From the IMG/VR virus record IMGVR_UViG_3300009610_000049, positions 1 through 42,181 of that record: a stretch of 42,181 nucleotides of DNA. The stretch is one strand, 5' to 3'. This document shows, one piece after another, positions 1 through 42,181 of the stretch. Position numbers and translations under genes: made by a program. Within the stretch, counting starts at the first letter, position 1. Each line of letters starts with the position of its first letter. This stretch comes from a virus. Below the pieces are notes generated by a model. That model did not search any database. It saw nothing but the letters and a program-made list of their open reading frames with translations, and had not been told where the DNA came from.

Positions 1-1854
1 AGTTTCTTCCCGACCACAGGCACCAATGGCGTAACGGCGGCTATCCAAAACGTTCCGGTCACTAACTATGACCCAAATGGGTCGGGCGTTGTTACCGCTA
101 TTCCGGGTGGCGCTTCTACCACTAGCATCCATAGGTTGTACCTGCTGGCTGGTGACTACGTATTCCTGTACGGCCAGAAGACCTATACAGACCTTACCAC
201 GGCTCTGTCTCAGATCGGTGTGGATGATTCGGCCACTGTCTACCCATCGAAGCTGAATAATGCCACGCTCCTGAGCTACATTGTGGCCCAGAAGGATTGC
301 GCTGATCTAAAGGATACTACAAAGGCTCGTCTGCTGGCTAAGGGCGGCACCAGTTTCAGCATCGGGTCGGCTAGCTCTATCTCCGATGCGCCGATCAACG
401 GTCTTGTGTATGGCCGTAAGGATGCCGCATGGGTAGAGGTTCCGCCGATTGCTAAGGGGCCACAGAGTACCCTACGTTCCTACTTCTTCTATACCAATGC
501 TCTGCCGCGCTGGTCTGTGACCGCTAATGACACGCCAGAGGGCGGCTCTAACACTGGCTCTAACTGGGAGCTACGCGCGTACAATGATGCTGGTACTTTA
601 CTATCCTCCCCTCTTGTTGTTAATCGTGCCACGGGTGCGATCACTGCTAATGCCCCTGTTACCTCTGTAGGTGTCGCTAGTCACGTTACTTCTGGCGGTG
701 ACGTAAAGGCCAATAGCAACTTCGCATCTACCAATACATCGGTAGTACTGGCAACGTCGGCGGCAGGTAATGTTTTCATACGGCCGAACGGTGCTGCGTC
801 TTCGGTCGGGCAGATGACTATTGCCGCGTCGGGTGCGTTGGTTTCCGGTGGCAGTATCACGTCCACAGGCGGCATAGTTTCTGGTGCTGGTATCTTCATC
901 GGTACGGGCGCCAATGTGGTACTTGGCCCCCAGACTCCGGGCGGCGTATTCTTCCAGCCACAGGGCGTAGGCGTTGCTACTAATCAGGCCATCGTTGCTG
1001 CTGATGGTAGCCTCACTGTCAATGGTCAGGGCGTATTCACTTCTGCCATTACAGTAGGTCAGAATTTCGGTTCCTCTACGTCCTTCGCTGTGCTGGGTCC
1101 GGCCTCCCCCGTTGCTGGTACGGTACTTCTGCGGCCCAATGGCGTTAACGTTTCTACGGGTGAAATTACGGCGGATTCTACTGGTAGTCTGGGTGTGCCG
1201 GGAAACATTAGTGCTGGTCAGCATATGTTTGCTAGCCAAAACTACTCTTCGACTGGCCCTAATGTGGTGCTGGCCGCTAACGGTGGTTCCGTCTTCCTGC
1301 GGCCGATCAATGCCGGTAGCGCTACTGGTCAAGCCATCCTAAACAACGCTGGCAACCTATCTGCCACTGGTTTTACTGCCGCTGCGGGTGGCATTGCCTC
1401 TGGTAACGTTGTTACTACTAGCGGGGCCGGGGCGGGCTTCCAATTCGCTGATCGGTCTAGTGCCCGCCAGTGGGTGTGGTATGGCAATGGTGATGCGGCC
1501 CGACTGTTCAACGGTTCCGCTGATATCGTTCAGATTGATTCTACCGGTGTCCTTACCTCCATAAATCAGGTCGCAACGTCCGACCAAATTCTTAAGGAAA
1601 ACATTTCTCCAAAAGCCCCGCGTCGGAATCTGGCAGATTTGATTTGCCTATACTCCTACGTTTGGAAGAGCAATGGTAAGGACGGGCTAGGCCAGATTGC
1701 GCAGCAGGTTAGGGAGCATGCACCGGAGTATGTCCACGAAGGAACTGATGGCATCCTGAGTATTGATAAGGCCAGTCTGGCTATGGAGTGTATCCTTGGC
1801 CTAGCGGAGCGGGTAAAGGAACTAGAGGACAAACTAAATGACCTTGCCAGCTAG
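1..1854 (+). CDS. Tail fibre, C-terminal part (gene wraps round from 41074)
   Basis: This is the distal part of a receptor-binding tail fibre. The frame is open from base 1 and continues the gene that starts at 41074. Collapsing the 25-base end overlap gives one protein of about 978 residues. The middle carries about four glycine/valine-rich repeats (see 742-1392). The last 90 or so residues begin SDQILKENI and contain GLGQIAQQV and a terminal coiled-coil-like stretch (LAERVKELEDKLNDL). These are hallmarks of the Peptidase_S74 intramolecular chaperone, which trimerises the fibre and then usually cleaves itself off. The ATG at 136 is internal, because the upstream frame is open and protein-like. 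Host range presumably depends on this protein. Confidence 0.88.
   Translation, partial: SFFPTTGTNGVTAAIQNVPVTNYDPNGSGVVTAIPGGASTTSIHRLYLLAGDYVFLYGQKTYTDLTTALSQIGVDDSATVYPSKLNNATLLSYIVAQKDCADLKDTTKARLLAKGGTSFSIGSASSISDAPINGLVYGRKDAAWVEVPPIAKGPQSTLRSYFFYTNALPRWSVTANDTPEGGSNTGSNWELRAYNDAGTLLSSPLVVNRATGAITANAPVTSVGVASHVTSGGDVKANSNFASTNTSVVLATSAAGNVFIRPNGAASSVGQMTIAASGALVSGGSITSTGGIVSGAGIFIGTGANVVLGPQTPGGVFFQPQGVGVATNQAIVAADGSLTVNGQGVFTSAITVGQNFGSSTSFAVLGPASPVAGTVLLRPNGVNVSTGEITADSTGSLGVPGNISAGQHMFASQNYSSTGPNVVLAANGGSVFLRPINAGSATGQAILNNAGNLSATGFTAAAGGIASGNVVTTSGAGAGFQFADRSSARQWVWYGNGDAARLFNGSADIVQIDSTGVLTSINQVATSDQILKENISPKAPRRNLADLICLYSYVWKSNGKDGLGQIAQQVREHAPEYVHEGTDGILSIDKASLAMECILGLAERVKELEDKLNDLAS
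742..1392 (+). repeat. Four degenerate repeats in the tail fibre
   Basis: About four imperfect units of 57-60 codons. Each has a VVLxxxxxGxVFxRPNG-like segment, then a TGQAxxxxxGxL-like segment, then a Gly/Ser/Ala-rich linker. The repeated cores start near bases 742, 913, 1087 and 1261. This is typical of the beta-structured shaft of S74-type fibres; the exact boundaries were read by eye. Confidence 0.6.
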
Positions 1855-2387: not shown

Positions 2388-2463
2388 GAGGGGCAGTTTA
2401 GGGGCCTGCCAACCCTACGCGCGGGGGAGTCGGTACGGAGGAATCCGACCCAGCCGCGCCGTC

Positions 2464-2709
2464 CTAATCGACCTTTACGTACATCGGTTTTGCGGTGGCG
2501 TAGTTATGGTCTTTCATGGTAGCCCCAAACTCTTCCTCAGTTTTGGCGTAGCCCAAGACTGTATCTTGGTCGTCCATGATGGCCCAGCCTACCCGCATTA
2601 GGGGGGATTCACTGTACCCCTTTTTCACGATCCATGCAACGCCTACTAGGGCTCCGATCGCAAAGACTAGAACTAGCATGGTGATAGTGGTGGCAATTTC
2701 AACGGTCAT
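2464..2709 (-). CDS. Small membrane protein, last gene of the leftward unit
   Basis: 81 residues with one strong N-terminal transmembrane segment (about residues 8-29, hydrophobic and Gly/Ala/Val-rich) and a soluble C-terminal tail. The tail contains VGWAIMDDQDTVLGYAKTEEE, which looks like a compact alpha/beta fold. A GGAG ribosome site lies ahead of the ATG. The topology would fit a bitopic inner-membrane protein such as a small holin-like or exclusion protein, but nothing identifies the function. A long inverted repeat separates it from the upstream gene. Confidence 0.6.
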   Translation of the reverse strand: MTVEIATTITMLVLVFAIGALVGVAWIVKKGYSESPLMRVGWAIMDDQDTVLGYAKTEEEFGATMKDHNYATAKPMYVKVD

Positions 2710-2729
2710 ATTGTAACTCCGATGGCGGC

Positions 2730-2813
2730 TTTAGGCTTCATTCTCGGCCGTGGCTGGGAGGGTACTCACAGGGGGGCAAGTTCGCCAAGAACGTACCGAG
2801 AATGAAGCCTAAA
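2730..2813. repeat. 18-bp perfect inverted repeat with a 48-nt loop
   Basis: Arms 2730-2747 and 2796-2813 are perfect reverse complements (TTTAGGCTTCATTCTCGG and its complement). They fill almost the whole gap between two small leftward genes. There is no T-run on the transcribed strand, so this is not a classical terminator. In the transcript it would form an 18-bp RNA duplex with a 48-nt structured loop. Confidence 0.85.
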
Positions 2814-2817
2814 ACTG

Positions 2818-3066
2818 CTACTGGTTATTAGGGTTATTGGGGTCTTTCCAGACCTTGAATACAGGCTGTGTCTCTGGGATAATATCCGCTGGCGTAGCAA
2901 AATTTAGTTGGTTCATTAGGGCATTTGTCGCATCCACGGCCAACTGCATTACCAAAGGTCCGGGGGCGTAGTTACCGCTATTGACCAACGCTTGGAACGT
3001 TTCAATCAACGTCCGATCATAGACGGTCAAACGTTCGTATAGGGTGTCTGGGGCTTTGAGTGCCAT
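2818..3066 (-). CDS. Hypothetical small protein
   Basis: 82 residues with a strong ribosome site (GGAGGATAT) before the ATG. The body looks helical (YERLTVYDRTLIETFQALVNSG, then VMQLAVDATNALMNQL), followed by a proline-rich tail ending DPNNPNNQ. No signal peptide or membrane segment. It lies downstream of two exported proteins but behind a hairpin terminator. The family was not recognised. Confidence 0.6.
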   Translation of the reverse strand: MALKAPDTLYERLTVYDRTLIETFQALVNSGNYAPGPLVMQLAVDATNALMNQLNFATPADIIPETQPVFKVWKDPNNPNNQ

Positions 3067-3083
3067 ATATCCTCCGATTAAAC

Positions 3084-3115
3084 AGGGCCGGGGGGTGCGG
3101 AATCCCCCCGGCTCT
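3084..3115 (-). terminator. Hairpin terminator after the exported-protein genes
   Basis: 12-bp GC-rich stem (AGGGCCGGGGGG with its near-complement, one mismatched or wobble pair) and an 8-nt loop. On the leftward strand it is followed by GTTTAAT. It sits 46 bp after the stop at 3161 and probably ends, or attenuates, the secreted-protein transcript. Confidence 0.6.
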
Positions 3116-3160
3116 GAACCATACGGCTAGGTTCCCCCGACCGTGCGGTTTTTGACCGTT

Positions 3161-3544
3161 TTACGGGCTGACGAACAGGTAAACCGTCTGCATGGTATTC
3201 TGGCCGAAGCCGATACCCGTCTGAATCGCAACGTTCTGATTCGCCGAAGCGGCCAGACCGAGGGCAGCGGCCGAACCCTGCTGCTGGGTGAAGCCGATGG
3301 AGCCCGACTGTGCGGCGCTGTCATTGCCGGAAAGCTGGCTGGCACCGAAGCTGGTATTGCCGGCGACGGCCGAGGACTGCTGGCCGGTGACACCGATCAG
3401 GGCAGCGGTACTGCCACCAACCGACTGCGAACCGACCTGCGACTGTGCGCCAGACTCGAACGAGCCAGCCGCCAGACCGATATCAACGGCACCGGCCGAA
3501 AACGAGGCAGCGGCGAGTGCGATTGCGAGTGCGATAAGCTTCAT
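3161..3544 (-). CDS. Exported Gly/Ser/Ala/Gln-rich protein
   Basis: 127 residues. An N-terminal Sec signal peptide (MKLIALAIALAAASFSAGA, probable cleavage after AGA) precedes a mature chain of about 108 residues. The mature chain is low-complexity, rich in Ser, Gly, Ala, Gln and Asn, and contains no Cys. The composition resembles secreted beta-fibre or surface proteins, but no curlin repeat could be aligned. The ribosome site is GAGAGG. It follows another exported protein by 74 bp and probably shares the promoter at 4480-4508. A secreted product is unusual for a phage replication arm and suggests alteration of the host surface. Function not identified. Confidence 0.7.
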   Translation of the reverse strand: MKLIALAIALAAASFSAGAVDIGLAAGSFESGAQSQVGSQSVGGSTAALIGVTGQQSSAVAGNTSFGASQLSGNDSAAQSGSIGFTQQQGSAAALGLAASANQNVAIQTGIGFGQNTMQTVYLFVSP

Positions 3545-3618
3545 GGTATTCCTCTCTTTGAGGGGCGGATATTACTAGCTACTAGTGCCCCAATACCTAG
3601 CAGCCTTGACGGGAAAAC

Positions 3619-4404
3619 TTAGCGGACTTTCTTACCCTCTTCATCGAGGTTAATGGTCTGGCCGTTGCTACCCTTGATAGTGGTAGCGGCCATTTTCTTG
3701 CTATCATCCGATGGCGGGGTCACTTCACCGCGCGGAGTACGCGGCTGGTATTCCTGCGGCGGGGTAGGGGCTTGATACTGCTGCTGCGACGGTTCAGCGG
3801 GCTCGCTTTTTGGCTGCGGCACTTCCATACCCAGCAAGCCTAGCTGTTCGCATGCGCCTTGCGTGCGGGGTTCCGCTTCCTGCTTGGCATTGGTTTCAGC
3901 CATGCAGATTTCCCACACTTGCATGACAATCAGGCGGCTAGCCATATCATGCAAGCCTGCATTGTAGGCATTGGCGGCGGCAGTTCCGAACTTTTCCGCC
4001 CGTCGGAGCGACTGGCAATTCCCGTCCATTTTCGGGCCCGATGCGCCGAGGCTCAAACCGAAGCCAGATGCACCCGCTGAGACAGTGCCGCCGCAATAGT
4101 CGGACGAGAACGAAACTGCGGCTGCCAGAGGGACGGCGGCATTCGTCTTGATCTTCTGGGTGGTAGTGGTGGGGATTCGGCTGGCTTCAAAGGTCTGCGA
4201 AAGACCAACGCCAACGGACAACTCGGTTGACTGGTTTGGATTGACCACGTTCCTGTTATCGGAACTGGCAGCGGCCCCGGAATTGCTTTCGGATACTGCG
4301 ATGGCGTCGGATGACGCATTGGTATTGACTGTATTGTCAACTTCGACGGCGCTAGCGGCCCCGACAAACAGCAATAGCGCGGATGCAAGAATGGTCTTGC
4401 GCAT
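3619..4404 (-). CDS. Exported protein with four cysteines and a Pro/Gln-rich tail
   Basis: 261 residues from the chosen start (MRKTILASALLLFVGAASA, a Sec signal peptide with an ASA cleavage site). An ATG 18 codons upstream is possible but would bury the signal. The mature N-terminus is Asn/Ser/Ala-rich (about residues 20-80). A central domain holds four Cys (DYCGG, GNCQS, EICMA, GACEQ) that could form disulfides in the periplasm. A Pro/Gln-rich linker and a charged tail follow. First gene after the strong leftward promoter at 4480-4508. No family recognised; candidate superinfection-exclusion or host-envelope modifier by context only. Confidence 0.72.
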   Translation of the reverse strand: MRKTILASALLLFVGAASAVEVDNTVNTNASSDAIAVSESNSGAAASSDNRNVVNPNQSTELSVGVGLSQTFEASRIPTTTTQKIKTNAAVPLAAAVSFSSDYCGGTVSAGASGFGLSLGASGPKMDGNCQSLRRAEKFGTAAANAYNAGLHDMASRLIVMQVWEICMAETNAKQEAEPRTQGACEQLGLLGMEVPQPKSEPAEPSQQQYQAPTPPQEYQPRTPRGEVTPPSDDSKKMAATTIKGSNGQTINLDEEGKKVR

Positions 4405-4479
4405 GATGGGTATTCCTATAGGTCGGGGCGGGTAGGATTCCGATGGGCCTGCCCCCAAGCCCCCCGGATTAGTCAGGAC

Positions 4480-4508
4480 ATATTAAGGTATGTGAGCGGA
4501 CCTGTCAA
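4480..4508 (-). promoter_or_regulatory. Strong sigma-70 promoter for the exported-protein genes
   Basis: On the leftward strand: TTGACA (4503-4508), exactly 17 bp, then TAATAT (4480-4485). The start of transcription would fall near 4473, about 70 bp before the ATG at 4404. Confidence 0.78.
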
Positions 4509-4509
4509 G

Positions 4510-4542
4510 ACCGTTCATCGGCTGTGATCGACGGCTGAACGG
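4510..4542. promoter_or_regulatory. Putative operator upstream of the -35 box
   Basis: On the leftward strand GATGAACGGT (4510-4519) stands one base upstream of TTGACA. The same 10-mer (GAYGAACGGT) stands one base upstream of TTGACC at 19283-19288 and occurs again at 14716-14725 and 19312-19321. Here it is also half of a dyad, CCGTTCA (4511-4517) and TGAACGG (4536-4542). Confidence 0.5.
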
Positions 4543-4543
4543 G

Positions 4544-4604
4544 GCTCCTGCGTGAAATCTGCTGGGCTACCCCCCTGCCAGTCGATCAGATTTGGCGCAG
4601 GAGC
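4544..4604. terminator. Long stem-loop between the nuclease gene and the exported genes
   Basis: Stem arms GCTCCTGCG (4544-4552) and CGCAGGAGC (4596-4604) continue, after a 2-nt internal loop, into AAATCTG (4555-4561) and CAGATTT (4587-4593), with a loop of 25 nt. It sits just past the end of the replication genes. It could end that transcript or fold at the DNA level beside the promoter. No clear T-run follows. Confidence 0.5.
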
Positions 4605-4620
4605 AGTATATGAACGGGGG

Positions 4621-5025
4621 CTACCGTATGGTCGTAAGCAGGATGCCGAGGTCACATAGTGCAAATGGAGGCCCGCTTTTCCATAGTGGACTGATAGGGG
4701 ATAGGGTAGAGGCAAAGTGCCCGCTATGGCAATACAAGAGGTCATTAATATAGCATAGAACAAAGGACTTTCCTCCTATTAGATTCCTGGCCCTATGCCA
4801 GCGGCGCTGGGCAGGGAGCATATGAATACCGTCACGCCATACCTTTAGCTCTAGCCAAATGTCACCGCCACGCCAGCCGAAGTTTAGATCAGGGATACCC
4901 CTGCTAGTTACATGGCTTTCAACGTGCGATACATGATAGCCCAATACTCCCCCCTCTACGAATATCCATCTACGTAGATCGGATTCGTTATGAATCGTCG
5001 TCGGCTTCTTCATAATAGGTATCAT
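4621..5025 (-). CDS. VRR-NUC family nuclease
   Basis: 134 residues. Probable endonuclease of the VRR-NUC branch of the PD-(D/E)XK superfamily, which in phages resolves or cleaves branched DNA during replication. The signature is clear: an early Glu (NESDLRRW), then SRGIPDLNFGWRGGDIWLELKV, which supplies the Gly-x-Pro-Asp and Glu-x-Lys catalytic residues, then QRRWH. It overlaps the 3' end of the primase-helicase gene. A second ATG four codons in (ending at 5013) is an equally plausible start, and neither has a good ribosome site. It ends the replication gene cluster. Confidence 0.75.
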   Translation of the reverse strand: MIPIMKKPTTIHNESDLRRWIFVEGGVLGYHVSHVESHVTSRGIPDLNFGWRGGDIWLELKVWRDGIHMLPAQRRWHRARNLIGGKSFVLCYINDLLYCHSGHFASTLSPISPLWKSGPPFALCDLGILLTTIR

Positions 5026-32418: not shown

Positions 32419-32889
32419 ATGAAGACGCTATTAGTAGCCGCATTGGCAAGCACGCTGTTGCTAGGCTGTGCTACTGATGCCGATGCCCAATTCCGCCCGA
32501 GAATCCAGATTAATATTCCGATCTTTACGGGCTATCTGGTTCACGAAAATCGGAACTATTGTTTCTATCGGTATCCCAATGGACAGGTTGAACGAGTTTC
32601 GCGTGATTGGGCATATCGGGGTGAACGTGATCGGTATGACCGGGATGGTCGCTGGGATCGTTATGGCCGGTATGATCGTGACGGTCGCCGTGACCCAGCA
32701 TATCGCTATTACAGTGATGGCCGTTATGACCGCGATGATGATAGCCGGCATGATGGGCGTTGGGGCTGGGGTCGTTATCAGCGAGCCTGCCCACAAAACT
32801 ACTCGGTTCGTATAGAGTTTGATTTGAACAGGGACCGTGACCGGTATCGCCACGATGATCGGGATTACAGGGATCGTCCTACCCGTTAG
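32419..32889 (+). CDS. Lipoprotein with Arg/Asp/Tyr repeats
   Basis: 156 residues. The N-terminus MKTLLVAALASTLLLGC has a lipobox (LLLG-Cys17), so the mature protein would be lipid-anchored in the envelope. A short ordered segment (ITGYLVHENRNYCFYRYPNGQ) is followed by an Arg/Asp/Tyr/Gly-rich region with repeated RYDRDGR, a Cys-containing RACPQNY and a final strongly charged tail. It may be an envelope or outer-membrane-facing protein, possibly an Rz1-like or exclusion lipoprotein. The gene order with the next small membrane protein is compatible with a lysis pair. Confidence 0.68.
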   Translation: MKTLLVAALASTLLLGCATDADAQFRPRIQINIPIFTGYLVHENRNYCFYRYPNGQVERVSRDWAYRGERDRYDRDGRWDRYGRYDRDGRRDPAYRYYSDGRYDRDDDSRHDGRWGWGRYQRACPQNYSVRIEFDLNRDRDRYRHDDRDYRDRPTR

Positions 32890-33679: not shown

Positions 33680-34393
33680 ATGGCACAGTCTGTCCTCCAA
33701 TTGGTCAACAAAGCCCTGCAAGAGATTGGCTTGCCGCAGGTGCTTACTATTGTGTCTGCGCCGGACGATCAAACCGGCTTCCAGACACTCGGCCTCTTGA
33801 ACGCACTGGGGAATCAGCTAATCAAGGTACATGATTGGCAGTTCCTAGAGAAGACCCAGACGTTTGTGGGGGACGGTATCCAGACTGAGTTCACGCTTCC
33901 TGAGGATTACAAAAGGATCGTGAATCAAACCCAGTGGAGCAGTAAGAATAAGCGACCGATGTATGGACCCATGACCCCACAAGGATGGTCATGGGTCCAA
34001 TTCGGCATTGTGTCGGTAGGTGTGTACTATCGCTATCGAGTGCTACGCAATAAGTTCACCGTATTTCCTACGCCCGCAGATCAAGAACAAATCAACTTTT
34101 TCTATATCAGCAAGCATTGGGTTTATGACCCACTTACTGATACCTATAAGGACAACATTACGGCCGACACTGATGAGACAGTCTTTGAAGACTATCTTAT
34201 GATCGCTGGTATCAAGTTTAAGTTGTGGGCGGCGAAGGGTATGGATGCGTCGGAACTGAGCCGTGAATTCGACTACATGCTGAACAATGAAAAAGCCCAG
34301 AATCAAGGTGCCCCGGTTATCCAGCTAGACAAGCGTTGGGACTACTTGTATATCTCCGGGCAAAATGTGCCGGATGGGAGCTGGAATGTTTAA
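33680..34393 (+). CDS. Tail tube protein A-like (T7 gp11-like adaptor)
   Basis: 237 residues. Connects the portal to the tail nozzle in podoviruses. Features: an early LQLVNKALQEIGLPQV, HDWQFLEKTQTF near 55, then FVGDGIQTEFTLPEDYKRIV and FPTPADQEQINFFYISKHWVYD, and DTDETVFEDYLMIAGIKFKLWAAKG near the end. All are typical of the short-tail adaptor family. Good AGGAG ribosome site. Absence of a tape measure or sheath gene anywhere supports a short tail. Confidence 0.8.
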   Translation: MAQSVLQLVNKALQEIGLPQVLTIVSAPDDQTGFQTLGLLNALGNQLIKVHDWQFLEKTQTFVGDGIQTEFTLPEDYKRIVNQTQWSSKNKRPMYGPMTPQGWSWVQFGIVSVGVYYRYRVLRNKFTVFPTPADQEQINFFYISKHWVYDPLTDTYKDNITADTDETVFEDYLMIAGIKFKLWAAKGMDASELSREFDYMLNNEKAQNQGAPVIQLDKRWDYLYISGQNVPDGSWNV

Positions 34394-36002
34394 GCTAAAG
34401 TCTCCCCAGCCTCAGGTATCACAGGCGCTTGCCTTGCTTGCGCCAACGGGCGGCATTAATGACCTAGACCCATTGGCGAAGATGGGTCCGGAGTTTATGA
34501 TTGATGCCATGAACCTCTATCCCGACAACGGGCTAGTGGTCGTGCGCCCCGGATACAGGGAGTATTGCACTGGCCTAGGCGGCGGTGCGGTTAAGACCAT
34601 TATGAGCTTCAATGCACAGGACGGTACTTTCCACAAGTTTGCTGCCACGGATGCAGGCATATATAATATCTCTGCCCCGATACAAAATCCTGTCCTCGCC
34701 ACGTCTGCGACCTTCGGTGAGTGGGAGTATACCAATTTTGCTACCTCCGCAGGGCAGTATCTCATTGCTGTTAACGGTGTTGATCCCGCAAAATTTTATA
34801 ATGGAACTTCGTGGCAAATCTTCACTGAGGTTGCGACCCCAGTTAACCCCGGCGAAATCAAGGGTGTCAACCCTTCTACCTTTGATTATGTCATCGCGCA
34901 TAAGGCGCGGCTATGGTTCATTCAAAAGAACACAATGACGGCTTGGTATCTTCCCGTTGACTCATTGGGCGGGGAAGCGAAGCCGTTTTATGTGGGGGGC
35001 ATCTTCAATCGTGGTGGATTCCTGAGGATGCTAGCACGATGGTCGTCTGATACAGGAGAAGGACTAGATGACCGCCTTATTTTCTTCACGTCAACCGGGG
35101 AGATTGCTTCATATGCTGGCAATGACCCTTCCAACTCAGCGGATTGGTCATTGGATTCGATCTTTTTTGTTGCGTCACCCCTCAGCAAAAGGTCGGTGGC
35201 TCCCTATGGCGGCGATATTATGCTTCTATGCCGTCGTGGGTTGGTTCCTCTTTCATCCCTCGTAACTGGGCAAGCTACAGAAGTGCTATATTCGGGTGCG
35301 CTATCCCGGCGTATCTCCCGAACGCTCCTGCGACTGTCCTCCATTGCAGCCCCTCCCTTCCCCCCTGAAGTACGGTTGCATGAAGACGCTGCTTGGGCGG
35401 TAATTAATATCTTCGATCCGGCGGTAGCTGGCGGTAGGTTCGATGGCACGAACGGGCCCATACAACTGGTAATGAATGTGCTTACAGGCGCGTGGGGTAA
35501 GTTTAATTATCCCTGCCGTACCGTGCGCAGCATTGATACCGTGCTGTATATGGGCACCGATGACGGCCGGGTACTGGCGGTTACCCCGGATGCGTTTGTA
35601 GACAATCGGCTTTTCAATGGCGTGGGCGGTGATCCGATTCAGGCTTACGGCATGGGTGCCTACACGTATCTTGAGAACCCGACTGTTAACAAACATGCCA
35701 AGCTGATCCGCCCCGTGTTTCAGGCGGAAGTGGTGCCCTCGTTTGTCATTCGTGTCCTACCAGATTTCCGGCTCGACCGTTTGGAGCAAGTACCCCCGCC
35801 TTCGCTGTCAATTGGTAATGCTAGGTGGGACGTGAGTTTTTGGGACCAAGCAAACTGGGCAGGCGCCGAAAACGTTTACAGGCCATGGCGTTCCGCTAAC
35901 GTACTGGGCTACGCTTTTGCCTGGCAAATGCGCATATCAACGTCATCCGCACTTGGCCTATCGGACCTAGAGTGGGTATGGGAGAATGGTGGACTCGTAT
36001 GA
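34386..36002 (+). CDS. Tail nozzle or stabilisation protein
   Basis: 538 residues from the ATG that overlaps the previous stop and has GGGAG upstream; an upstream start at 34365 is less likely. The start LALLAPTGGINDLDPLAKMGPEFMIDAMNLYPDNGLVVVRPGYREY is typical of podovirus tail nozzle or packaged-DNA stabilisation proteins (T7 gp12/P22 gp10-like). Repeated beta-propeller-like strands follow. A late SLSIGNARWDVSFWDQANW agrees. Closes the tail after packaging. Confidence 0.72.
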   Translation: MFKLKSPQPQVSQALALLAPTGGINDLDPLAKMGPEFMIDAMNLYPDNGLVVVRPGYREYCTGLGGGAVKTIMSFNAQDGTFHKFAATDAGIYNISAPIQNPVLATSATFGEWEYTNFATSAGQYLIAVNGVDPAKFYNGTSWQIFTEVATPVNPGEIKGVNPSTFDYVIAHKARLWFIQKNTMTAWYLPVDSLGGEAKPFYVGGIFNRGGFLRMLARWSSDTGEGLDDRLIFFTSTGEIASYAGNDPSNSADWSLDSIFFVASPLSKRSVAPYGGDIMLLCRRGLVPLSSLVTGQATEVLYSGALSRRISRTLLRLSSIAAPPFPPEVRLHEDAAWAVINIFDPAVAGGRFDGTNGPIQLVMNVLTGAWGKFNYPCRTVRSIDTVLYMGTDDGRVLAVTPDAFVDNRLFNGVGGDPIQAYGMGAYTYLENPTVNKHAKLIRPVFQAEVVPSFVIRVLPDFRLDRLEQVPPPSLSIGNARWDVSFWDQANWAGAENVYRPWRSANVLGYAFAWQMRISTSSALGLSDLEWVWENGGLV

Positions 36003-41073: not shown

Positions 41074-42181
41074 ATGCCCCGTAATGGCTCTGGTGGATAC
41101 AGCCTCCCCGCTGGTATCAACCCGGTAGTTACCCAGACACTTATTACAAGTAACTGGGCTAATACTACCCTTAATGACGTGGCGGTGGCTCTGTCTAATA
41201 GCCTCGCCAAAGATGGGCAGACACTCCCTACCGCTAACCTGCCTATGGGTGGGTTCGCTCACACAGGTGCGGGCGATCCTGCTTCCCGTGATATGTATGA
41301 TACGCTAGGATACGTTCAGGACGGTAGGCATTTCCGTCTTACGAATGTGTCCGGTGTCAATCAAATCATAGCGACCTTGCCCGGTGGCGCTACGGCGCTA
41401 CAGGTGGGTCAGATCGTCCAGCTACTCCCGGCATCCAATAACACTGGCGCAACTACCCTCAATATCAATGGCATCGGTGCCAAGCCGGTTACTACCGATC
41501 TAGCTAATCCGCTGGGTGCCGGAAACCTAGTCGCCAACAGGCCCTATCTCCTGTCCTATACGGGTACGTCATGGGTGATGATTACTGCCGGTGGCGGTAG
41601 CTCGGGCATCGCTCAGGCCGCCATGAGCGGCTGGGACAGGCCCTCCGTGACCGGGCCGTACCCTCCGATCACACAGGTAGACGCGACGACTGTAGCCGTT
41701 CCTGCGGGCACTGGCAGAATCATCCGTCCGTCCGCCCGCGATTTGTCGGGTGTGACTGAGGTAGCGTGGGCTACCCAGAATGTAGTGCTTACTTCGGTAG
41801 CCACTGCATGGACTACCATACTGGGTGTCAATGCGTCCGGTCAGATAGTGCAATTCACGGGTAACTTTAACCCGGTCTGGGCGCGTGAGAATATCCTGAT
41901 CGGTAGTATCTCGCACGTGAATGGCGTGGTCAGCAAGATCAATACTATTCCTGCCATCTTTGGAGATATGACTTACGCCTCATTCGACGTAAGTAGCCTG
42001 CTGCACAATACGCTAATCAGTGGTGGGCGCGTCCTACCAAATGCCGCAAGCCCGTTCCATGTGGATTTGCAGGCGGGTAGCATCTTCACCCTAGGCGGGG
42101 ATGCGAACGACGTTAACGATCCCAACCGGCGCGATTTTCCGGCTGCCTTTGACCTGAGTTTCTTCCCGATCACAGGCACCA
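41074..42181 (+). CDS. Tail fibre, N-terminal part (continues at base 1)
   Basis: 361 codons up to the end overlap, in frame with 1-1854 once the 25-base overlap is collapsed. Start from an AGGAGG ribosome site (41061-41066) and MPRNGSGGYSLPAGINPVV. The N-terminal virion-attachment segment (GINPVVTQTLITSNWANTTLNDVA, then ANLPMGGFAHTGAGDPASRDMYDTL) is typical of phage fibres. A beta-rich region with QLLPASNNTGATTLNINGIG follows, then a module PITQVDATTVAVPAGTGRIIRP, which recurs in phage receptor-binding proteins. Two bases separate it from the ejection gene. Confidence 0.85.
   Translation, partial: MPRNGSGGYSLPAGINPVVTQTLITSNWANTTLNDVAVALSNSLAKDGQTLPTANLPMGGFAHTGAGDPASRDMYDTLGYVQDGRHFRLTNVSGVNQIIATLPGGATALQVGQIVQLLPASNNTGATTLNINGIGAKPVTTDLANPLGAGNLVANRPYLLSYTGTSWVMITAGGGSSGIAQAAMSGWDRPSVTGPYPPITQVDATTVAVPAGTGRIIRPSARDLSGVTEVAWATQNVVLTSVATAWTTILGVNASGQIVQFTGNFNPVWARENILIGSISHVNGVVSKINTIPAIFGDMTYASFDVSSLLHNTLISGGRVLPNAASPFHVDLQAGSIFTLGGDANDVNDPNRRDFPAAFDLSFFPITGT

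What the first reader, a model, noticed from the sequence alone, without database searches (positions are those of the whole stretch)
3161..4404. Two exported proteins on a dedicated strong promoter at the end of the early arm
Both genes begin with clear Sec signal peptides, one mature chain has four Cys and a Pro/Gln-rich tail, the other is a Ser/Gly/Gln/Asn-rich low-complexity chain. They have a TTGACA-17-TAATAT promoter and a hairpin terminator of their own. Phage proteins sent to the periplasm or surface often block superinfection or alter the host coat, and this pair does not resemble a known family to my reading.
Basis: partly seen in the sequence, partly recalled or inferred. Interest (0 to 1): 0.66.

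Follow-up and report, generated by a model that had tools for sequence, protein, structure and literature searches.

The report
Phage exported-protein pair with RNA pseudoknot leaders
A tailed phage carries a portable pair of genes for secreted proteins of unknown function, each preceded by a knotted RNA fold next to its translation start; the same pair, with a knot at least before the second gene, recurs in unrelated phages and in two bacterial chromosomes, and it probably changes the surface of infected cells.

Summary
Gene A (261 aa, 4404..3619) and gene B (127 aa, 3544..3161) lie on the minus strand, with Sec signals, no lipobox, and a real promoter (boxes kept in relatives at -104). The "terminator" is a hairpin just before the start of the next gene and has no U-run. 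A and B match no Pfam or PHROG family. A is followed by B in 21 other viral contigs and in two sphingomonad chromosomes outside any prophage. Several of these phages lack a recognisable relative of the window's major capsid protein and terminase, so the pair moves as a cassette. All four A cysteines are invariant; B is two 45-residue beta repeats. It held in a later set: 3/5 strict, the rest with relaxed geometry. In the window only A and B have it among 38 gene leaders. Most likely role: an envelope or surface modifier, perhaps superinfection exclusion, with pseudoknot-controlled translation. Function is inferred; the anatomy is shown.

The parts
4480..4508 (-). sigma-70-type promoter TTGACA-17-TAATAT in front of gene A
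   Evidence: site; boxes kept at -104 in L001-L003, variants in L004-L006
4425..4468 (-). H-type pseudoknot in the leader of gene A: S1 4468-4457/4450-4439 (one mismatch), S2 4455-4451/4429-4425, ending 20 nt before the ATG
   Evidence: relaxed search, 0 of 200 shuffles as good; present in 6/6 close-clade A leaders; best of 38 window gene leaders
3619..4404 (-). gene A, exported protein, 261 aa
4348..4404 (-). Sec signal peptide of A (residues 1-19, MRKTILASALLLFVGAASA)
   Evidence: sequence; hydrophobic character and A-x-A kept in homologues while the letters change
3850..4095 (-). conserved core of A (residues 104-185) with four invariant Cys; predicted helices 128-148 and 152-172
   Evidence: invariant columns in 16 sequences; AlphaFold2, helical part only pLDDT 65-70
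3562..3605 (-). H-type pseudoknot in the leader of gene B: S1 3605-3597/3585-3577, S2 3591-3587/3566-3562, ending 17 nt before the ATG
   Evidence: 0 of 500 shuffles as good; covariation across 15 leaders
3161..3544 (-). gene B, exported Ser/Gly/Gln/Asn-rich beta protein, 127 aa
3488..3544 (-). Sec signal peptide of B (residues 1-19, MKLIALAIALAAASFSAGA)
   Evidence: sequence
3362..3478 (-). first beta repeat of B (residues 23-61), invariant residues all at odd positions
   Evidence: invariant columns; strands 21-49 and 52-72
3227..3343 (-). second beta repeat of B (residues 68-106), register of repeat 1 plus 45, invariant residues all at even positions
   Evidence: invariant columns; strands 75-95 and 98-126
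3087..3112 (-).
   Evidence: kept in L001, L002

Best explanation
Genes A and B are a mobile, co-inherited cassette of two Sec-exported proteins that a tailed phage makes from its own host-type promoter alongside its replication genes. Shown by sequence: the constant A-B order, signal peptides without lipobox, the four invariant Cys of A and the alternate-residue beta repeats of B, and RNA pseudoknots abutting the ribosome-binding sites of B (all lineages examined) and of A (this clade). Inferred: the pseudoknots set or limit translation initiation through their shape. A forms a disulfide-stabilised small domain with disordered Ser/Gln/Pro-rich arms. B self-associates through its Ser/Gly/Asn-faced strands, and the two together coat or remodel the periplasm or surface of the infected cell. 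The most likely benefit is to exclude later phages or mask receptors, which would also explain stand-alone chromosomal copies.
For: Pairing: A followed by B in 21 other viral contigs and two chromosomes. Selection. Horizontal movement: near-complete contigs L014-L016, L019 and L024 have no recognisable relative of the window's major capsid protein or large terminase; in L004 the primase is 34% identical but A and B are 83% and 80%. Replication-gene neighbourhood in window, L016, L018, L019, L024. Chromosomal copies beside mrp antiporter and TonB-receptor genes (Novosphingobium) or HPPK, IS21-type transposase and penicillin-amidase genes (Sphingomonas), not in a prophage. Pseudoknots: 15 of 16 B leaders by a strict search against 0.28% per leader in shuffles; 14 of 18 hits among 214 gene leaders belong to A or B; covariation, 100% paired against 62% when 3' strands are dealt out anew; later set; A leaders and the 16th B leader; window specificity 2 of 38.
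Against: No functional data. The superinfection role rests on context alone. In L014 and L016 an N-acetylmuramidase endolysin lies directly downstream of the pair, which keeps a lysis link open. Structure models are weak (B pLDDT 63, pTM 0.32; A pLDDT 42) and fold hits are not convincing. The pseudoknot search was written after seeing the first leaders; the later set helps but is small (5 leaders, two nearly identical). The strict pattern failed for L060_B and, by distance, for L065_B.
Confidence: 0.42

Rival explanations
1. Lysis accessory: A and B act in the periplasm at the end of infection (non-canonical spanin-like or wall-loosening pair).
For: An N-acetylmuramidase gene is directly downstream in L014 and L016; both proteins go to the periplasm; no spanin gene was recognised in the window.
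Against: No lipobox, no anchor helix beyond the signal peptide, no coiled coil. In window, L018, L019, L024 and L042 the pair sits among replication or other genes, not with an endolysin. It is kept in chromosomes without lysis genes next to it.
Confidence: 0.15
2. Extracellular fibre or matrix (curli- or Fap-like functional amyloid) laid down by infected cells: B is the fibre subunit, A a chaperone, cap or co-subunit.
For: B has alternate-residue invariance (11/11 odd, then 10/10 even), a 45-residue repeat and Ser/Gly/Asn/Gln faces; strands predicted; A has Ser/Gln/Asn-rich arms.
Against: No match to the Pfam curlin repeat; only two repeats; no secretion pore such as CsgG was seen nearby; model confidence low.
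Confidence: 0.2
3. B forms an oligomeric beta-barrel pore or ring in the outer membrane, helped by A.
For: Best fold matches of the B model are long beta-hairpins of ring-forming pores and phage collar/tail proteins; a sub-threshold YadA-anchor match, E 0.029, 14.9 against 22.7 bits.
Against: TM-scores about 0.2-0.3 and E-values above 0.001; the variable face of the strands is not hydrophobic enough for a lipid-facing surface (reading).
Confidence: 0.1
4. Virion component exported or carried for host attachment.
For: Capsid protein is similarly conserved in the close clade (91-97%); tail-fibre genes are near in the window and adjacent in L019.
Against: Sec signals are unusual in tailed-phage virion proteins (own knowledge); the pair is found in phages without a recognisable match to this capsid protein and in chromosomes without phage genes beside it.
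Confidence: 0.06

Closest known systems
T4/T2/RB69 gene 32 leader pseudoknot (PMC3014915)
   Same: H-type pseudoknot with two stems in a phage mRNA leader upstream of the translation start, kept in related phages.
   Different: There it lies in a region 67 nt upstream of the start codon, followed by an A+U-rich stretch over the ribosome-binding site, and the gene product itself binds it. Here stem 2 ends about 15-24 nt before the start, the stems share no sequence, and the gene products are exported and so cannot easily bind their own mRNA. The same review says the gene 32 case may be the only viral example used in translational autoregulation.
Unnamed A-like proteins of Achromobacter phages phiAxp-2, AXY1, 2-1 and vB_Ade_ART; phrog_20531
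   Same: Exported, low-complexity N-terminus, 'SFS.D.C...G' then 'D..C..LRR.E' core (profile comparison probability 88%, E 2.8e-6); also paired with a small exported Gly/Ser-rich gene. phrog_20531 matches the phiAxp-2 protein (E 1.4e-5) and weakly an A homologue (E 0.054).
   Different: The partner lies upstream and is not recognisably homologous to B; no clear leader pseudoknot there. Function unknown in both.
Phage superinfection-exclusion envelope proteins (T5 Llp, N15/phi80 Cor; own knowledge)
   Same: Small phage proteins exported to the envelope and made outside the lysis module.
   Different: Those are single lipoproteins; A and B have no lipobox and come as a pair.
Curli and Fap functional amyloid subunits (own knowledge)
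   Same: Sec-exported Ser/Gly/Asn/Gln-rich beta repeats.
   Different: No curlin-repeat match, two 45-residue repeats, no dedicated secretion pore seen.

Membership tests
Two-component spanin (Rz/Rz1) | Outer-membrane subunit is a lipoprotein with a lipobox Cys | tested here: not met
   Neither signal peptide holds a Cys; homologues keep A-x-A sites
Two-component spanin (Rz/Rz1) | Gene placed with endolysin/holin | tested here: inconclusive
   Endolysin next to the pair in L014 and L016 only; not in window, L018, L019, L024
Phage superinfection-exclusion lipoprotein (Llp, Cor) | Lipid-anchored outer-membrane protein | tested here: not met
   No lipobox in A or B
Phage superinfection-exclusion lipoprotein (Llp, Cor) | Blocks adsorption or injection of related phages | not testable with these tools
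   needs expression and phage challenge
Curlin (Pfam curlin repeat) | Match to the repeat profile | tested here: not met
   no such match for B or five divergent B homologues at E<=1
YadA-type anchor | Match above the curated Pfam cut-off | tested here: not met
   14.9 bits against 22.7
Gene 32-type leader pseudoknot | H-type pseudoknot in the mRNA leader | tested here: met
   by sequence and covariation, not by probing:
Gene 32-type leader pseudoknot | A+U-rich unstructured tract over the ribosome-binding site, pseudoknot in a region 67 nt upstream of the start | tested here: not met
   stem 2 ends 15-24 nt before the start in the 15 strict hits and no common A+U tract follows; reference features from PMC3014915
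Gene 32-type leader pseudoknot | Gene product binds its own leader and represses translation | not testable with these tools
   unlikely, since A and B carry export signals
Any Rfam family | Covariance-model match | tested here: not met
   no relevant match in window 2400-4700 (E<=10) or in L003, L006, L014, L016, L019 (E<=1); covariance models do not hold pseudoknots

The most novel reading that the evidence does not exclude
A portable envelope-modifying system, shared between unrelated tailed phages and present in some bacterial chromosomes, in which exported beta-repeat and Cys-core proteins confer superinfection exclusion and are kept in check by a shape-read leader pseudoknot: a further viral case of pseudoknot control of translation initiation, and the first for exported proteins.
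Probability: 0.2. Interest if true: 0.8.

Novelty: new variant of a known kind. Interest (0 to 1): 0.6.

Why it matters
It turns two anonymous phage genes into a testable module: a conserved exported pair with its own structured RNA element that moves between unrelated phages and into bacterial chromosomes. Leader pseudoknots controlling translation are very rare in phages (a 2010 review knew one, gene 32; PMC3014915). If the pair blocks other phages, it is a new kind of envelope-level immunity, at least in sphingomonads. If not, it still gives a clean RNA element to test by stem-swap mutants.

Tried and rejected
Known families: Pfam and PHROGs for A, B and nine divergent homologues, and INPHARED and plasmid tblastn, gave nothing above threshold. 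Whole-genome profile searches found the pair rare in Sphingomonadales (1 of 348, the index genome) and in the phylum and class samples, so it is not a core bacterial gene. Homology of B to the Achromobacter partner was not supported by profile comparison. Plain hairpin folding of the A and B leaders gave no strong energy signal (z about -2 to +1); the signal is in the pseudoknot. MAFFT alignments of the leaders were trimmed too tightly at stem 1 and misaligned the distant rows, so the covariation was counted from the structures themselves, which are 100% paired by construction; the control is the re-dealt strands. The pseudoknot is not seen in A leaders of the distant group, in most A-like loci with an upstream partner (one exception, the L061 partner gene), or before C and D. 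AlphaFold2 for A was too weak to use for a fold search.

Full report
WHAT IS THERE. The window is a 42,181-base virus record with terminase, portal, capsid, family A polymerase, primase and helicase genes. Genes A (4404..3619, 261 aa) and B (3544..3161, 127 aa) are on the minus strand, downstream of the primase gene and a small gene (5025..4621, match to a phrog labelled DNA helicase); C (82 aa) and D (81 aa) follow before the convergent tail-fibre gene. A and B have Sec-type signals without lipobox. A has four Cys in its mature chain.

PROMOTER AND 'TERMINATOR'. By itself the promoter match is no better than chance for this region, but TTGAC(A/C/T)-17-TAATAT stands at the same distance (-103 to -105) in L001-L003, with weaker forms in L004-L006, so I accept it. 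The hairpin at 3112..3087 has no U-run and sits just before the Shine-Dalgarno of C; it is also kept in L001 and L002. I do not accept it as a shown terminator.

THE PAIR IS A CASSETTE. Close relatives: six IMG/VR contigs. Profile-guided searches found distant ones. In the contigs of this arrangement where the downstream DNA is held, A is followed by B: 21 viral contigs besides the window, and two chromosomes, Sphingomonas sp. IC081 and Novosphingobium organovorum. Flanks in the chromosomes are HPPK, an IS21-type transposase and penicillin amidase, or Mrp antiporter subunits and a TonB receptor, not a prophage. The near-complete contigs L014-L016, L019 and L024 have no detectable match to this window's capsid protein or large terminase; L018 has a 51% capsid match. 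In L004 the primase is 34% identical while A and B are 83% and 80%. A is rare in bacteria (1 of 348 Sphingomonadales genomes, the index genome). A second arrangement exists: A-like genes preceded by a different small exported Gly/Ser-rich gene, in L061-L063, two small genomes (L049, L051) and four Achromobacter phages. The A core is the shared part (probability 88%, E 2.8e-6).

PROTEIN ANATOMY. Across 16 homologues all four A cysteines and the SFSSDYCGG...D..CQ.LR.AEK.G core are invariant. In B, the 11 invariant residues between 23 and 61 all have odd numbers and the 10 between 80 and 110 all have even numbers; the positions 41, 43, 45, 51, 53, 55, 57 recur as 86, 88, 90, 96, 98, 100, 102, an exact offset of 45. 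This is the signature of extended strands with one conserved face, in two repeats; AlphaFold2 gives four long strands, at low confidence. Fold searches returned long-hairpin rings and pores without convincing scores, which I treat as a hint only.

THE RNA ELEMENT. Leaders of B give no strong signal as plain hairpins, but each holds a hairpin whose loop pairs with a segment just before the Shine-Dalgarno. A simple H-type search (stem 1 of 5-12 bp, stem 2 of 4-10 bp, loops bounded) finds it in 15 of 16 B leaders with stacking energy <= -25 and stem 2 ending 13-26 nt from the start; shuffles of the same leaders reach this in 0.28%. The sixteenth (L046) has it with one mismatch. Of 214 genes tested in the same loci, 18 leaders pass and 14 are A or B. 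Stem sequences differ completely (GGGGC/GCCCC, ACCGGACA/UGUCCGGU, UGCCAGCCA/UGGCUGGCA, CCCCGGAA/UUCCGGGG) with pairing kept; individual stem 1 pairs show up to six pair types; re-dealing the 3' strands drops pairing from 100% to 62% on average, 75% at most. Within leaders that align without gaps there are plain double changes: L003 against L004, three in stem 1; L001 against L002, one (read). In leaders fetched afterwards L057, L058 and L059 pass unchanged criteria, L065 has one 29 nt from the start, and L060 needs wider loops by eye. A leaders of the close clade hold the same element, 6 of 6, none of 200 shuffles as good in each; distant A leaders do not. In the window, A and B rank first and second of 38 gene leaders (-34.4 and -29.8; the next is -22.3). 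No relevant Rfam match.

HOW IT MOST LIKELY WORKS. Shown: conserved promoter, conserved export signals, constant pair, conserved leader pseudoknots with covariation. Inferred: the pseudoknots, abutting the Shine-Dalgarno, limit or set initiation by shape, since stem sequence is free; exported A and B assemble in the periplasm or on the surface. Because the pair is mostly found with replication genes, moves between unrelated phages and persists alone in chromosomes, I favour an envelope change useful against competing phages. A lysis role is kept open by the endolysin next to the pair in L014 and L016; a fibre or matrix role by the B repeats.

KNOWN RELATIVES. The nearest RNA precedent is the T-even gene 32 leader pseudoknot; the review read here (PMC3014915) places it in a region 67 nt upstream with an A+U tract, bound by the gene's own product, and says it may be the only viral example used in translational autoregulation. 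Here position, downstream sequence and the nature of the product differ, so it may work like, but is not, that element. The proteins are not members of spanin, lipoprotein-exclusion, curlin or YadA families by the features tested.

LIMITS. Post-hoc search rule, small later set, weak structure models, no wet data, hosts unknown except for the two sphingomonad chromosomes.

Noticed in passing
window 2710-2817 (-): Leader of gene D holds a hairpin of more than 20 bp (TTTAGGCTTCATTCTCGG...CCGAGAATGAAGCCTAAA), folding z-score -7.3; function unknown.
   Followed up: no
window 3067-3160 (-): Leader of gene C: perfect 9-bp GC hairpin directly before the Shine-Dalgarno, kept in L001 and L002; possibly a translational rather than a termination signal.
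   Followed up: partly
window 1-25 and 42157-42181: First and last 25 bases agree at 24 of 25 positions (AGTTTCTTCCCGA[C/T]CACAGGCACCA): an unclosed circular assembly or a repeat in the tail-fibre region.
   Followed up: no
L003 and L004, downstream of B: Gene C homologue lies on the opposite strand relative to A-B, so the neighbourhood is rearranged around an intact pair.
   Followed up: no
L061 4335-4763 (+): The unrelated upstream exported partner of an A-like gene also has a strong leader pseudoknot (-38.2, none of 300 shuffles as good).
   Followed up: partly
L042 5039-5383 (+): The gene after B also has a pseudoknot-like leader with a 9-bp stem 2.
   Followed up: no
window 32419-32889 (+): A lipobox-bearing (LLGC) Arg/Asp/Tyr-rich protein sits inside the structural-gene arm.
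   Followed up: no
window 34365-36002 (+): PHROG label 'amidase' (phrog_5107, E 2e-97) on a protein in the structural arm; the label looks doubtful for its context.
   Followed up: no
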